A stretch of 46,064 bases of DNA, from assembly GCA_949293295.1 (NCBI GenBank), contig CASFCG010000025.1:1-46064 (forward strand). Reading direction: 5' to 3'. Below are positions 26,860-44,850 of this stretch, in pieces. This DNA comes from an uncultured Cetobacterium sp. (GTDB lineage: Bacteria > Fusobacteriota > Fusobacteriia > Fusobacteriales > Fusobacteriaceae). The number at the start of each line of letters is the position of its first letter. Positions within the stretch are counted from its first letter, which is position 1. Position numbers and translations under genes: made by a program. The notes beneath the pieces were generated by a model. It worked only from the letters and a program-made list of their open reading frames with translations, ran no database searches and was not told the origin of the DNA.

Positions 26860-27825
26860 ATGATAAAGATTTTTAGAACTCACAATAATATTTTAGAAAA
26901 AAAAATATTTTCTATTTCTGAAACTTTAGAGATTGATAAATTAACTGAAAAAAATAGCTGGATTCACCTTTTAAATCCTAATGAAGAAGAGATAAAAGTT
27001 ATTACAAATAGTTTTAATATTCCAGAGGAGCATGTTAGAGCGGCACTAGATGAGGAAGAGAAAGCACGTTTAGAGATTGATGAGGATATGGTTTTATTAA
27101 TAATAGATGTTCCTATTCAGACACAGGATAACTATTGCTCGTTTTCCACTGTTCCATTGGGAATTATACTTTTAAAAGATAATATAATAACCATTTCAAC
27201 TATAGAATTGAATCTGATTGATGAGTTTATTATTGGAAGAATAAAAAGTTTTTTTACATTTAAGAAAACGCGTTTTATACTTCAAATGCTTTTTAGAAAT
27301 TCAACATATTTTTTAATTTATCTTAAACAGATAAGTAGAATAAGTGAAAATATTGAAAGAAAATTGAAAAATAATTTTAATAATGAAGAGCTTTTACTAT
27401 TGCTTGATTTAGAAAAAAGTTTGGTTTATTTTTCAACCTCTTTAAAATCTAATGAAGCTGTTTTGGAAAGAATGATGAGAACAGAGATAGTTAAACAGTA
27501 TGATGAAGATTTGGAATTGTTGGAAGATGTTATCATTGAAACAAAACAGGCGATTGAGATGGCAAATATTTATTCAAGTATTTTGAGAAGTACCAGAGAT
27601 GCTTTTTCAGCTGTTATGTCAAATAACTTAAATGTTGTTATGAAAAGATTAACTTCTATAACAATTGTATTTGCAATTCCAACTGTCGTATCTGGATTCT
27701 GGGGAATGAATGTTCAAGGTATTCCATTTTCTAACTCTGTTTTTGGCTTTTGGTACGTTTTTATAGTTGCTTTTGTGTTGGGAGTTGGCTGTGTGTGGTC
27801 GCTTATAAAGAAAGATTTATTTTGA
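26860..27825 (+). CDS. corA: CorA-family magnesium/divalent cation channel
   Basis: 321 residues. The soluble N-terminal funnel domain (WIHLLNPNEEEI, IPEEHVRAALDEEEKARLEI) and long helices lead to two C-terminal membrane helices, with the diagnostic GMN at the pore mouth (GFWGMNVQGIPF). It mediates Mg2+ influx at the inner membrane. It follows dnaN by 16 bases with ribosome site AAAGGAG and ends in a strong terminator. It is probably co-transcribed with dnaN. Confidence 0.94.
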   Translation: MIKIFRTHNNILEKKIFSISETLEIDKLTEKNSWIHLLNPNEEEIKVITNSFNIPEEHVRAALDEEEKARLEIDEDMVLLIIDVPIQTQDNYCSFSTVPLGIILLKDNIITISTIELNLIDEFIIGRIKSFFTFKKTRFILQMLFRNSTYFLIYLKQISRISENIERKLKNNFNNEELLLLLDLEKSLVYFSTSLKSNEAVLERMMRTEIVKQYDEDLELLEDVIIETKQAIEMANIYSSILRSTRDAFSAVMSNNLNVVMKRLTSITIVFAIPTVVSGFWGMNVQGIPFSNSVFGFWYVFIVAFVLGVGCVWSLIKKDLF

Positions 27826-27830
27826 TTAAA

Positions 27831-27880
27831 AAAGCTGTTATAAATTGATGATTGTGATTCATTAATTTACAGCTTTTTTT
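27831..27880 (+). terminator. dnaN-corA terminator
   Basis: Stem AAAGCTGT/ACAGCTTT (27831-27838, 27869-27876) with an inner AAATT/AATTT pairing and a T-run. It shares the word AGCTGTTATAA with the rpsP terminator. Confidence 0.85.
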
Positions 27881-27951
27881 GTTAGGTGCTTTTATTAAGA
27901 AAGTTTAAAATAATTAGAATAAAAATATACAAAGTAATTTTTAAAAAATTA

Positions 27952-27980
27952 TTGACTTAATTTTAAAAAAGAACTACAAT
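27952..27980 (+). promoter_or_regulatory. Promoter of the decarboxylase-arginase gene
   Basis: TTGACT (27952-27957), 17-bp spacer, TACAAT (27975-27980). The start would be near 27987, giving a leader of about 65 bases. Confidence 0.7.
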
Positions 27981-28051
27981 ATCTTGCATTTATAATTACG
28001 TAGTATTGAAATTATTTTAATTTATAGATAAATTTACTATAAGGAGGTAAG

Positions 28052-30403
28052 ATGACTAAATTAAATCAAAATCAAACGCCGATATTTTCAACTTTAAAGG
28101 ATGTGTATGCTAAGCGTGATATAACCCCTTTCCATGTCCCAGGACATAAAAGAGGAAAAGGAGTAGACAAAGAGTTTTATGAATTTATGGGAAAGAATCC
28201 TTTTTCAATTGATGTAACTATTTTTAAGATGGTCGATGGATTACACAATCCAAAAAGTTGTATAAAAAAAGCTCAAGAGTTAGCAGCAGATGCTTATGGA
28301 GTTAAGAGGAGCTTTTTTGCTGTAAACGGAACCTCTGGAGCCATTCAAGCTATGATTATGTCGGTTGTAAAACCTGGAGAAAAAATCTTAGTTCCTAGAA
28401 ATGTTCATAAATCAGTATCAGCTGGAATAATTCTTAGTGGTTCTAATCCAGTTTATATGAATCCGGAGGTTGATAATGAGCTTGGAATAGCTCACGGAAT
28501 AAAACCAGAAGTTGTTGAGAATATGTTGAAAATACATCCAGACACAAAAGCTGTTTTAATAATCAATCCAACATATTATGGAGCAACTACAGATATAAAA
28601 CGAATAGCTGATATAGTTCATAGTTATGATATACCTTTAATTGTTGATGAAGCTCATGGGGCACATCTTCATTTTCATGAAGAGCTACCAATGGCTGCAA
28701 TGGATGCAGGAGCAGATATTTGTTGTCAAAGCACTCATAAAATAATAGGAGCAATGACTCAAATGTCAATGTTACATGTAAATTCTGATAGAGTGGATGC
28801 CAATAGAGTTCAACAGATTTTAAGTTTACTTCATACAACTTCTCCTTCATATCCGTTAATGGCTTCTTTAGATTGTGCAAGAAGACAGATAGCGATAGTG
28901 GGAAGAGAACTTTTGACAAAAACTTTAAAACTAGCTAGAGAGTTAAGAAGTGAGATAAACAAAATACCTGGGATATATGCTTTTGGAAAAGAGATAATTG
29001 GAAAATATGGAATATATGATTTTGATGAAACTAAATTGTCAATATCTGCTCGTGAGTTAGGATTAACTGGATTTGAGCTTGAAACATTATTAGTAGATGA
29101 TTATAATATTCAAGTTGAGTTATCGGATTTTTATAATGTGTTAGGGCTAATAACTTTGGGAGATGATGAAGAGAGCACAGGAAAATTATTATCTGCTTTG
29201 AAAGATATAAGTGAAAGATTTTATGGAAAAGGAAAAAGATTGATAAATAAAACTGAAAAATTTCCAAATCTACCAGAAGCTTTATTGATTCCGAGAGAGG
29301 CTTTCTACAGTGAGACAAATAAGGTTAAATTTGACGAGAGCGAAGGGAAAATATGTGCAGAAATGATAATGGCTTATCCTCCAGGAATTCCAATAATTAC
29401 ACCGGGAGAGAGAATTACTAAAGAGATAATAGAGTATATAAAAAGCTTAAAGATTGCTAAACTTCATGTTCAAGGAATGGAGGATGAGAATTTAGAATAC
29501 ATTAAGATTATAGAGGAAGAGGATGCAATTTATCTTTATACAGAAAAAATGAAAAATAAGATGTTTGCAGTTCCAATGAACTTAGGAGCAAATAAAGCTG
29601 GAATTGAATTTGGACCAGAGGTATTAGAGGAGTACTTTCCAGATACTTTTGGAGAGATGACTTATATTGAAGTTGAAAAACAAAGAGAGAACTTTAATGA
29701 TTGGTCTTTAAAATATAAAAATACTGTTTTAAATACATGTGAAAAGTTAGCAACTGCAGTAAATGAGGCTGTGAAAGATGGATATAGACCTATTACCATC
29801 GGTGGAGACCACTCCATCGCTTTAGGTTCTATTTCAGGTGTCGCACTTGAAAAAGAGATTGGTGTTGTTTGGATAGATGCTCATGGTGATATGAATACTG
29901 ATGAGACGACAGTATCTGGGAATATTCATGGAATGCCGCTTGCTTTGTTACAAGGTGCAGGAGATAGGGACCTTGTAAATTGTTTTTATGAAGGAGCTAA
30001 GATAGATAGTAAAAATGTTGTTATATTAGGGGCGAGAGATTTAGATGTAAAAGAGAGAGAGGTTATTCAAGAATTAGGAGTAAAGGTTATTCCTTATGAT
30101 GAGGTTATACATAAGGGACTTGACAATGTATTAGAAGAGATTAAAGAGTATTTAAAGATTGATAATATTCATATAAGCTTTGATGTAGACTCTATTGACC
30201 CAGAGTTTGCCCCTGGAGTAAGTACCCCTGTAAGAAATGGTTTTACCCCTGAAGATATGTTTAAAACATTTAAATTTTTGTTCAAAAACTATTATATTAC
30301 ATCTGTTGATATTGTGGAATATAATCCTGTAAATGATAAGAATGAAAAAACGATGAATTTTGTCAATGATTTGACAGAGTTTGTATTGAATCCTAATATG
30401 TAG
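28052..30403 (+). CDS. Fused SpeA-like PLP decarboxylase and arginase-family ureohydrolase
   Basis: 783 residues, two complete enzymes in one frame. Residues 1 to about 490 are a short-form Orn/Lys/Arg decarboxylase: TPFHVPGHKRG, NGTSGAIQAMIMSVVKPG, VDEAHGAHLHFHEELP, PLP lysine K230 in STHKIIG, and AYPPGIPIITPGE. It closely resembles B. subtilis SpeA over its whole length. Residues 503-783 are an arginase fold with manganese ligands H587 (GGDH), D609/H611/D613 (DAHGD), D711 and D713 (FDVDSIDP). SGNIHGMP (622-629) and VEYNP (755-759) are arginase-type rather than agmatinase-type. Together they could make putrescine, urea and CO2 from arginine by either order of steps. The start ATG follows AAGGAGG. 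Specificity of each half is inferred. Confidence 0.9.
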   Translation: MTKLNQNQTPIFSTLKDVYAKRDITPFHVPGHKRGKGVDKEFYEFMGKNPFSIDVTIFKMVDGLHNPKSCIKKAQELAADAYGVKRSFFAVNGTSGAIQAMIMSVVKPGEKILVPRNVHKSVSAGIILSGSNPVYMNPEVDNELGIAHGIKPEVVENMLKIHPDTKAVLIINPTYYGATTDIKRIADIVHSYDIPLIVDEAHGAHLHFHEELPMAAMDAGADICCQSTHKIIGAMTQMSMLHVNSDRVDANRVQQILSLLHTTSPSYPLMASLDCARRQIAIVGRELLTKTLKLARELRSEINKIPGIYAFGKEIIGKYGIYDFDETKLSISARELGLTGFELETLLVDDYNIQVELSDFYNVLGLITLGDDEESTGKLLSALKDISERFYGKGKRLINKTEKFPNLPEALLIPREAFYSETNKVKFDESEGKICAEMIMAYPPGIPIITPGERITKEIIEYIKSLKIAKLHVQGMEDENLEYIKIIEEEDAIYLYTEKMKNKMFAVPMNLGANKAGIEFGPEVLEEYFPDTFGEMTYIEVEKQRENFNDWSLKYKNTVLNTCEKLATAVNEAVKDGYRPITIGGDHSIALGSISGVALEKEIGVVWIDAHGDMNTDETTVSGNIHGMPLALLQGAGDRDLVNCFYEGAKIDSKNVVILGARDLDVKEREVIQELGVKVIPYDEVIHKGLDNVLEEIKEYLKIDNIHISFDVDSIDPEFAPGVSTPVRNGFTPEDMFKTFKFLFKNYYITSVDIVEYNPVNDKNEKTMNFVNDLTEFVLNPNM

Positions 30404-30421
30404 TTCGTAGAGGTGTAATTT

Positions 30422-31270
30422 ATGAAAAAATTGGTATTGTCCAAACTAGAAGAAAATTTTGTAAGTTATAGCAAAAGTTTCAGAAAAATAGCTGACTTTA
30501 TAAAACATAATCAAAATATAATATCTTTTATTTCAATTAATGAATTAGCTAAAGAAACATTTACAAGTCCAGCAACAGTAACTAGATTTTCCAAAAGTTT
30601 AGGATTTAAAGGTTATCCAGATTTTCAAAAGGTTTTTCAAAAAGATGTCGAGATATCTTCTTCCCAAATGAAAACTTTTAGAGATGAGATTCAAGCTGTA
30701 GAGGGAGAAAATATTCTTTCAGAGATAATAACAACAAATATAGAGTTATTAGAAGAGTTGGATACAACTTTTATTGAGAAACAGCTAGAAGATGCTATAA
30801 AATTAATAAAACAAAGCAGAAAATTATATATTTTAGGAGCTAGAGGCTCATATGGATTAGCACATTATTTGTATTATATGTTGAAAGAGTTGAAAGAAAA
30901 TGTTGAATTAATGATTTCTGGAGCTTCTGACTTCACAGATAAGCTTTTGTATTCTAATAAGGAGGACGTACTTTTTACGATTTCATTTCATCCATATACT
31001 AATTTTACTTGTCAAGTAACAGAGTTTTTTAAAGAACAAGGAAATAAAATTATAACTATGACAGATAAAAAAGATTCTGTATTGGGAGAGATGTCTGATT
31101 TAATAATTACAACTAAAAATGGTGGAAAAGCGTACACATTTGTTCCTGGAATTATAATTTTAAACGCATTATTATTAAAATTTGCAAAGCAGAATAGTGA
31201 TGAGAGTGTTAAGAAGTTGGATAGATTAAAAGAGATTACAGGTAAATTTAATATTTACTACAAAGAGTAA
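30422..31270 (+). CDS. MurR/RpiR-family transcriptional regulator
   Basis: 282 residues. The N-terminal RpiR helix-turn-helix (1 to about 75: IADFIKHNQNIISFISINELAKETFTSPATVTRFSKSLGFKGYPDF) is followed by a SIS phosphosugar-binding domain (about 125-255: KLYILGARGSYGLAHYLYYMLKE, FTISFHPYTNFTCQVTEFFKEQ). The family senses sugar phosphates and represses or activates catabolic genes. It lies 18 bases after the decarboxylase-arginase gene with no terminator between, so it is probably co-transcribed. That is an unusual partner for a polyamine enzyme, and the target is unknown. Confidence 0.9.
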   Translation: MKKLVLSKLEENFVSYSKSFRKIADFIKHNQNIISFISINELAKETFTSPATVTRFSKSLGFKGYPDFQKVFQKDVEISSSQMKTFRDEIQAVEGENILSEIITTNIELLEELDTTFIEKQLEDAIKLIKQSRKLYILGARGSYGLAHYLYYMLKELKENVELMISGASDFTDKLLYSNKEDVLFTISFHPYTNFTCQVTEFFKEQGNKIITMTDKKDSVLGEMSDLIITTKNGGKAYTFVPGIIILNALLLKFAKQNSDESVKKLDRLKEITGKFNIYYKE

Positions 31271-31274
31271 ATAA

Positions 31275-31320
31275 AGGGTCATTATAGATTGGAAAATCCA
31301 ATTTATAATGGCTCTTTTTT
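31275..31320 (+). terminator. Terminator after the RpiR gene
   Basis: A long stem 31275-31292 with 31298-31315 (ends AGGGTC/GGCTCT, inner ATTATA/TATAAT and ATTGG/CCAAT), followed by TTTTTT. Confidence 0.85.
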
Positions 31321-43809: not shown

Positions 43810-44850
43810 GTGAAAGGAAAGGTAGTATTAGGATTAAGTGGTGGTGTTGATTCCTCTACATCTGCGTACATTTTAAAGGATGAGGGATTCGAGGTAATAG
43901 GGGTAACTTTGATATGCACTGATGAACAGCTTAACTCAAAAGATTTAGAAGATGCGAAAAATATTACAAAAAAACTTGGAATAAAGCATGTTTTAGTTGA
44001 TATTAGGAAAGAGTTTAAAGAAAAAGTTATAAATTATTTTTTAGATGAATATTCAAAAGGTTCTACACCTTCTCCATGCGTGGTCTGTGATGAACTGATA
44101 AAAATAGAAAATCTAAAGAGAATAGCGGATAGTGAAGGGGCATACTATATAGCTACGGGACATTATTGTGAAACAGTGTTTAATGAGAGGTTTAAGAAGA
44201 CTCTTTTGACAAAAGCAAAAGATGAAAGAAAAGACCAAAGCTACATGCTCTATAGAATAGAGCCAGATATTTTAAGAAGAATAATATTTCCATTAGCAAA
44301 ATATGAAAAAAGATATGTAAGAGAGAAAGCAAAAAATTATGGTTTGGAAGTTTATGATAAAAAGGATAGTCAAGGGCTTTGTTTTGCTAGACTAGGTTAT
44401 TTGGATTTTTTGAAAAGCGAGTTGCAATTTGAGATAAAAAAAGGGGATTTTGTAGATAAAGATGGAAATGTATTAGGACAACATCAAGGATATCAGCTAT
44501 ATACGATAGGTCAAAGAAGAGGTTTAGGAGTTATATTTTCAAGAGTGTATTTTATAATTGATATAATTCCAGAGAGAAATCAAATTGTTTTAGGAGATTA
44601 TACTGATTTGGATAGAGAGCTAATAGAATTAGTTGAATTTAAATCTCACATCCCCATAGAGGAGTTGGAAGAATTGGAGCTTTTAGCAAAACCTAGATTT
44701 TCAAGCTTTGGATTTTACGGTAAAGTTTTCAGAAATAATGGAAAAATATATTTTAAATATAATAAAAAAAATCCTCAGAATGCAAGAGGTCAACATCTAG
44801 TTTTATACTTTAATGATTGTATTGTAGGAGGAGGAAAAATTAAATTTTAA
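43810..44850 (+). CDS. mnmA: tRNA-specific 2-thiouridylase MnmA
   Basis: 346 residues. PP-loop SGGVDSS (10-16) binds ATP, TPSPCVVC holds the likely nucleophile Cys93 (with an extra Cys90), and the second catalytic cysteine is Cys191 in DSQGLCFA. TIGQRRGLG and the C-terminal GQHLVLYFNDCIVGGGKI are also family motifs. It thiolates U34 of tRNA-Lys, -Glu and -Gln. The start is GTG (43810), 3 bases after the birA stop. The second active-site segment reads LCFARLGY where ICFIGE-like residues are commoner, a minor variation. Confidence 0.93.
   Translation: MKGKVVLGLSGGVDSSTSAYILKDEGFEVIGVTLICTDEQLNSKDLEDAKNITKKLGIKHVLVDIRKEFKEKVINYFLDEYSKGSTPSPCVVCDELIKIENLKRIADSEGAYYIATGHYCETVFNERFKKTLLTKAKDERKDQSYMLYRIEPDILRRIIFPLAKYEKRYVREKAKNYGLEVYDKKDSQGLCFARLGYLDFLKSELQFEIKKGDFVDKDGNVLGQHQGYQLYTIGQRRGLGVIFSRVYFIIDIIPERNQIVLGDYTDLDRELIELVEFKSHIPIEELEELELLAKPRFSSFGFYGKVFRNNGKIYFKYNKKNPQNARGQHLVLYFNDCIVGGGKIKF

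What the first reader, a model, noticed from the sequence alone, without database searches (positions are those of the whole stretch)
28052..30403. Decarboxylase-arginase fusion: a one-chain arginine-to-putrescine enzyme
A whole SpeA-like PLP decarboxylase (K230) is fused in frame to a whole arginase-fold ureohydrolase with all six metal ligands. The hydrolase carries SGN-x-HGMP and EYNP, features of arginase rather than agmatinase. Two routes give the same products: arginase first, then ornithine decarboxylation, or arginine decarboxylation, then agmatine hydrolysis. The SpeA similarity points to the second and the arginase motif to the first, so the substrate logic is unresolved and interesting. 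Both active sites look intact.
Basis: partly seen in the sequence, partly recalled or inferred. Interest (0 to 1): 0.75.

Follow-up and report, generated by a model that had tools for sequence, protein, structure and literature searches.

The report
Known ornithine decarboxylase–arginase fusion enzyme
This gene from a Cetobacterium-like bacterium encodes one protein that should cut arginine into ornithine and urea and then turn the ornithine into putrescine; the same fusion is already described from Fusobacterium relatives, and here, unlike in the oral Fusobacterium version, both halves look intact.

Summary
ORF 28052-30403 (+) encodes 783 aa with a complete ancestral-form PLP decarboxylase (K230) and a complete arginase domain with all six metal ligands. 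It is not an assembly artefact: 50 other fusion ORFs (54-90% identity) occur across the Fusobacteriaceae. It is also not new. It is the ornithine decarboxylase/arginase ("ODA", gene oda) described from Fusobacterium (PMC8503589; PMC12826042; Mothersole 2022; PDB 8d27).

The hydrolase half scores as arginase, not agmatinase. The expected route is arginine to ornithine to putrescine.

The window copy is an intact member; the oral F. nucleatum type has lost two ligand Asp (S609, N713). In the window lineage the arginase half is under stronger purifying selection than the decarboxylase half.

Modest additions: two further independent arginase-site losses (G044, G050), one clean loss of the arginase domain (g6), and one in-place loss of the decarboxylase half in a congener (G013). 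No alternative route to ornithine or putrescine was found in the incomplete, apparently reduced genome. Activity and channelling are untested.

The parts
28052..30403 (+). oda: ornithine decarboxylase/arginase fusion, 783 aa
   Evidence: ORF; Pfam domains; 54-90% identical relatives across Fusobacteriaceae
28076..29173 (+). PLP decarboxylase major domain (residues 9-374), AAT fold, no N-terminal receiver domain; PLP lysine K230 at 28739-28741
   Evidence: OKR_DC_1 E 7e-93; STHK in every fused copy
29249..29488 (+). decarboxylase C-terminal domain (residues 400-479)
   Evidence: OKR_DC_1_C E 7e-14
29489..29560 (+). inter-domain linker (about residues 480-503); residues 495-499 have pLDDT under 50; the stand-alone arginase of relative G013 starts at the position of residue 500 (MKNKMFAV)
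   Evidence: AlphaFold2 model; L063 ORF
29561..30373 (+). arginase domain (residues 504-774), metal ligands H587 D609 H611 D613 D711 D713; substrate-site residues N615 S622 N624 H626 D665 E668 and E756
   Evidence: Arginase E 1e-61; NCBIfam rocF 225.8 bits against agmatinase 95.6; residue tally
27952..27984 (+). probable oda promoter TTGACT-17-TACAAT followed by ATCT
   Evidence: 10 of 12 consensus matches; same element upstream of oda in congeners and upstream of the stand-alone arginase in G013
30422..31270 (+). RpiR/MurR-type regulator (HTH_6 + SIS), 18 bases after oda; probably co-transcribed
   Evidence: Pfam; directly downstream of oda (or of the lone arginase) in all congeners tested, not in the other genera tested
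31273..31317 (+). intrinsic terminator closing the oda-rpiR unit
   Evidence: 20-pair stem followed by a T run

Best explanation
The gene encodes a bifunctional ornithine decarboxylase/arginase (ODA). The C-terminal Mn2+-type arginase domain hydrolyses L-arginine to L-ornithine and urea. The N-terminal ancestral-form PLP decarboxylase then turns the ornithine into putrescine and CO2. In this apparently reduced Cetobacterium-like genome it is probably the only route to putrescine. Shown here: fusion, complete catalytic residues, clade membership, purifying selection on both halves. Shown in the literature for homologues: ornithine decarboxylation, and essentiality of oda for putrescine in F. 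nucleatum. Inferred: that this copy's arginase is active, and the order of the two steps.
For: Domains and catalytic residues are complete. The decarboxylase tree places the fusion clade together with the F. necrophorum-type 490-aa enzyme (69% identity, STHK), separate with 100/100 support from the SxHK clade, which contains the Psychrilyobacter-type gene of an ADC-SpeD-SpeE cluster; a Bacillus SpeA-like protein also has SxHK. PMC8503589 measured the F. necrophorum enzyme as 309-fold in favour of ornithine over arginine and showed that the F. nucleatum fusion decarboxylates ornithine. The hydrolase half scores 225.8 bits for arginase (cut-off 227.6) against 95.6 for agmatinase (cut-off 174.3) and keeps the residues aligned with arginase N130, S137, N139, H141, D183, E186 and E277. 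The arginase half evolves under stronger constraint than the decarboxylase half in this lineage: dN about 0.033-0.041 against 0.088-0.094 to the closest congeners. No ornithine carbamoyltransferase, arginine deiminase, argininosuccinate synthase, agmatine deiminase, SpeD or second ureohydrolase or OKR decarboxylase was found in the genome.
Against: No enzyme assay exists for this copy, and none of an intact-site natural ODA was found in the papers I could read. The arginase score is 2 bits under the curated equivalog cut-off. The genome is 83% complete, so absences are provisional. The F. nucleatum homologue has lost arginase function, so a fused arginase domain is not proof of arginase activity.
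Confidence: 0.87

Rival explanations
1. Arginine decarboxylase plus agmatinase: the N-terminal half makes agmatine and the C-terminal half hydrolyses it to putrescine and urea.
For: Distant similarity of the decarboxylase half to SpeA (about 49% to a Bacillus velezensis SpeA-like protein). Ancestral-form decarboxylases have some activity on non-preferred amino acids (PMC8503589).
Against: The decarboxylase half is in the ornithine clade, 69% to the F. necrophorum-type enzyme against 46-50% to the arginine clade. The hydrolase scores 225.8 bits for arginase against 95.6 for agmatinase. Residues aligned with those that bind the alpha-amino and carboxylate groups of arginine are kept.
Confidence: 0.05
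2. Only the decarboxylase works; the arginase domain is a structural relic, as in F. nucleatum.
For: The F. nucleatum relative is inactive as arginase (PMC12826042). Dead-looking arginase domains stay in frame in g3, G044 and G050.
Against: All six ligands are present here, at exactly the positions changed in F. nucleatum (609 and 713). Arginase-half dN/dS is 0.014-0.029 to congeners, lower than the decarboxylase half. In congener G013 the arginase is kept while the decarboxylase half is gone.
Confidence: 0.06
3. Two separate genes joined by an assembly or sequencing artefact.
For: None found.
Against: 50 further fusion ORFs in independent genomes, including finished replicons such as Ilyobacter polytropus NC_014633.
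Confidence: 0.005

Closest known systems
F. nucleatum ornithine decarboxylase/arginase (ODA, oda; PDB 8d27 arginase domain; PMC8503589, PMC12826042, Mothersole et al. 2022 doi 10.1021/acs.biochem.2c00197)
   Same: Same length class (783 aa), same domain order, 71% identity to the F. vincentii copy, ornithine-type decarboxylase half with STHK.
   Different: The oral type carries Ser609 and Asn713 in place of the two ligand Asp, and Glu in place of D663/D665; the window copy has Asp at all four.
F. necrophorum ancestral-form ornithine decarboxylase (490 aa, PMC8503589)
   Same: Decarboxylase half 69% identical to the g6 enzymes of that type, same STHK clade.
   Different: No arginase domain and no trace of one downstream.
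Bacterial Mn2+ arginase RocF (B. subtilis 6nfp, B. caldovelox 1cev)
   Same: Arginase domain 35-40% identical, SGNIHGMP, all ligands.
   Different: Stand-alone proteins; the window domain is fused to a decarboxylase.
Bacillus SpeA-type arginine decarboxylase; Psychrilyobacter-type ADC of the ADC-SpeD-SpeE cluster
   Same: Same short (no receiver domain) OKR decarboxylase fold.
   Different: 46-50% identity, SxHK instead of STHK, separate clade; the Psychrilyobacter type is linked to spermidine synthesis genes.

Membership tests
Fusobacteriaceae ODA (ornithine decarboxylase/arginase fusion) | In-frame N-terminal ancestral-form OKR decarboxylase followed by C-terminal arginase domain, about 780 aa | tested here: met
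Fusobacteriaceae ODA (ornithine decarboxylase/arginase fusion) | Decarboxylase half in the ornithine-specific clade | tested here: met
   Tree and identities; STHK
Fusobacteriaceae ODA (ornithine decarboxylase/arginase fusion) | Decarboxylates ornithine in vitro or complements an ODC mutant | not testable with these tools
   Shown only for F. nucleatum homologues (PMC8503589)
Mn2+ arginase (RocF) | Six metal ligands: H, DxHxD, DxD | tested here: met
   H587 D609 H611 D613 D711 D713
Mn2+ arginase (RocF) | Score over the curated NCBIfam cut-off of TIGR01229 | tested here: inconclusive
   225.8 bits against a cut-off of 227.6; agmatinase model far lower at 95.6
Mn2+ arginase (RocF) | Releases urea from arginine | not testable with these tools
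   No assay
Agmatinase (SpeB) | Score over the cut-off of TIGR01230 | tested here: not met
   95.6 bits against 174.3
Ancestral-form arginine decarboxylase (SpeA) | Grouping with the arginine decarboxylase clade (SxHK) | tested here: not met
   Separated with 100/100 support; STHK

The most novel reading that the evidence does not exclude
The intact fusion passes ornithine from the arginase site to the decarboxylase site within one assembly (substrate channelling), and repeated decay of one or other half in this family follows how each lineage gets its ornithine. The evidence does not exclude this but does not show channelling.
Probability: 0.12. Interest if true: 0.55.

Novelty: new member of a known kind. 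Interest (0 to 1): 0.3.

Why it matters
The published fusion from oral Fusobacterium has a dead arginase, so it cannot show what the fusion is for. An intact natural version from a Cetobacterium-like genome with no other visible ornithine route is a good candidate for testing whether fused arginase and ornithine decarboxylase cooperate. The family also offers a natural series of independent losses of one half or the other.

Tried and rejected
Assembly artefact: rejected by 50 independent fusion ORFs. Arginine decarboxylase/agmatinase logic: rejected by clade and motif. RNA regulatory element near the gene: no Rfam family match in 27700-30500. Remnant of the arginase domain after the g6 decarboxylase, and of the decarboxylase before the G013 arginase: none above chance; the row that extended the G013 match to residue 454 through five stops is therefore treated as spurious. 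The Mothersole 2022 full text is not held; its title and main conclusion are cited through PMC12826042. The argininosuccinate-synthase-family hits in the genome are not counted as ArgG: the best one, C25:43819, falls in the window ORF 43810-44850, which looks like the tRNA thiolase MnmA, and all are short weak matches. The OTC-family hit is PyrB-like. Papers on Cetobacterium polyamines: nothing relevant by title. The AlphaFold model (pLDDT 81.5, pTM 0.60) supports both folds but says nothing reliable about how the domains are placed or about channelling.

Full report
OBSERVATION. The ORF at 28052-30403 (+) is a single open frame of 783 codons with a good ribosome-binding site. Pfam assigns OKR_DC_1 (9-374), OKR_DC_1_C (400-479) and Arginase (504-774), all above cut-off.

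NOT AN ARTEFACT, AND WIDESPREAD. A search of the 98 held genomes of the phylum found the fusion in 51 places including the window (one copy is cut by a contig end), the others at 54-90% identity. All lie in the window's own family, f1. The named relatives closest to the window are Cetobacterium; Ilyobacter polytropus (NC_014633) and Fusobacterium vincentii (NZ_CP084075) carry it too. [quoted passage not shown]

ALREADY KNOWN. PMC8503589 (2021) reported the F. nucleatum fusion, showed by yeast complementation and a labelled-ornithine assay that it is an ornithine decarboxylase, and noted that its arginase domain lacks two ligand Asp. [quoted passage not shown] PMC12826042 (2025) names the gene oda, finds it essential through putrescine, and cites Mothersole et al. 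2022 for loss of arginase function (Ser609, Asn713); the cited title restricts the loss to oral-associated species. The full text of Mothersole et al. was not available to me. From memory only, its abstract says the family 'ostensibly' channels ornithine to putrescine and that the substitutions are confined to an oral clade.

SUBSTRATE LOGIC. The maximum-likelihood tree of the decarboxylase half puts every fused copy and the stand-alone 490-aa g6 enzymes in one clade, apart from the SxHK clade with 100/100 support (the branch between them is long and the tree program warns about it). The g6 enzymes fit the F. necrophorum ornithine decarboxylase in length, in lacking an arginase domain, and in being about 45% identical to the G040 enzyme. 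G040's gene is followed by SpeD-like and SpeE-like ORFs, fitting the Psychrilyobacter arginine decarboxylase cluster in PMC8503589. The window half is 69% identical to g6 and 49.7% to G040. A Bacillus velezensis SpeA-like protein has SVHK, not STHK. Several other columns separate the two fusobacterial clades (28, 56, 58, 61, 95, 260, 265). The hydrolase half is arginase-like by score and keeps the residues that align with arginase N130, S137, N139, H141, D181, D183, E186 and E277 (rat numbering from general knowledge). Both halves therefore point to arginine, then ornithine, then putrescine. SpeA similarity alone does not imply arginine decarboxylation.

INTACT IN THIS LINEAGE. At exactly the two positions that disable the F. 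nucleatum domain (609 and 713) the window has Asp. Pairwise Nei-Gojobori estimates between the window and three congeners give dN 0.033-0.041 and dN/dS 0.014-0.029 for the arginase half, against 0.088-0.094 and 0.054-0.069 for the decarboxylase half. dS is high in these comparisons, so dN is the safer measure. In the oral type (g3) the arginase half is the faster one: the dN ratio is about 2.1 in two of three pairs and 1.4 in the third; in G044 it is 1.6.

GENOME CONTEXT. The held assembly is 1.18 Mb at an estimated 83% completeness, against 2.1-3.1 Mb for all but one of its congeners. It holds one ureohydrolase and one OKR decarboxylase, both this gene. No ornithine carbamoyltransferase or arginine deiminase passes cut-off in any of the 12 genomes of the genus, and no SpeD or agmatine deiminase was found in the window genome. 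These absences are provisional. The gene has a conserved promoter-like element (TTGACT-17-TACAAT). An RpiR-type regulator gene follows directly in all congeners tested, closed in the window by a terminator at 31273-31317. In F. nucleatum oda is reported as monocistronic, so the two-gene unit is specific to this genus as far as tested.

DECAY SERIES. The arginase site is lost in three different ways: g3 (D609S, D713N; known), G050 of g12 (D609G, H626N; sisters G051 and G052 intact) and G044 of g9 (D609G, H611R, D613G, D713G). The trees place these apart, so at least three separate losses is the simplest reading. The g6 lineage has no arginase domain. Because it branches inside the fused clade next to g3 (100/97), loss is simpler than an unfused ancestor. 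In G013, a congener of the window, the decarboxylase half is missing at the same locus: the oda promoter element is followed by a 285-aa arginase that starts at MKNKMFAV, then the same RpiR gene, with no decarboxylase remnant above chance. I did not find the two extra site losses or the G013 case described in the papers I could read.

VERDICT. A new, intact member of a known fusion family. The surprise is modest because the fusion is published. What remains open, and is directly testable with this copy, is whether an intact fused arginase feeds the decarboxylase, and whether by channelling.

Noticed in passing
L053 (G044), residues aligned with 609-713; L052 (G050): Two arginase-site losses in the fusion that differ from the known oral Fusobacterium pair: D609G/H611R/D613G/D713G and D609G/H626N. 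The domains stay in frame.
   Followed up: partly
L063 (G013) 628-2565: Congener with the decarboxylase half cleanly deleted: oda promoter element, stand-alone 285-aa arginase (with SGH instead of SGN), then the RpiR gene.
   Followed up: yes
L088, L070-L075: Stand-alone arginases of g13/g14 all carry SGHIHGMP (His at the N139 position), as does the G013 stand-alone one; the G053 copy lies among ORFs that look like ornithine aminomutase genes. Meaning of the His is unknown.
   Followed up: no
window 1-46064 (G000): The genome is about half the size of its congeners' (1.18 Mb, 83% complete), which suggests a reduced, possibly host-restricted Cetobacterium relative.
   Followed up: no
L076, L077 (G017, G015 of g3): Oral-type g3 genomes with a dead-looking fused arginase also carry a separate, distant, intact-looking arginase-family protein (37-39% identity) about 16-34 kb away.
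   Followed up: no
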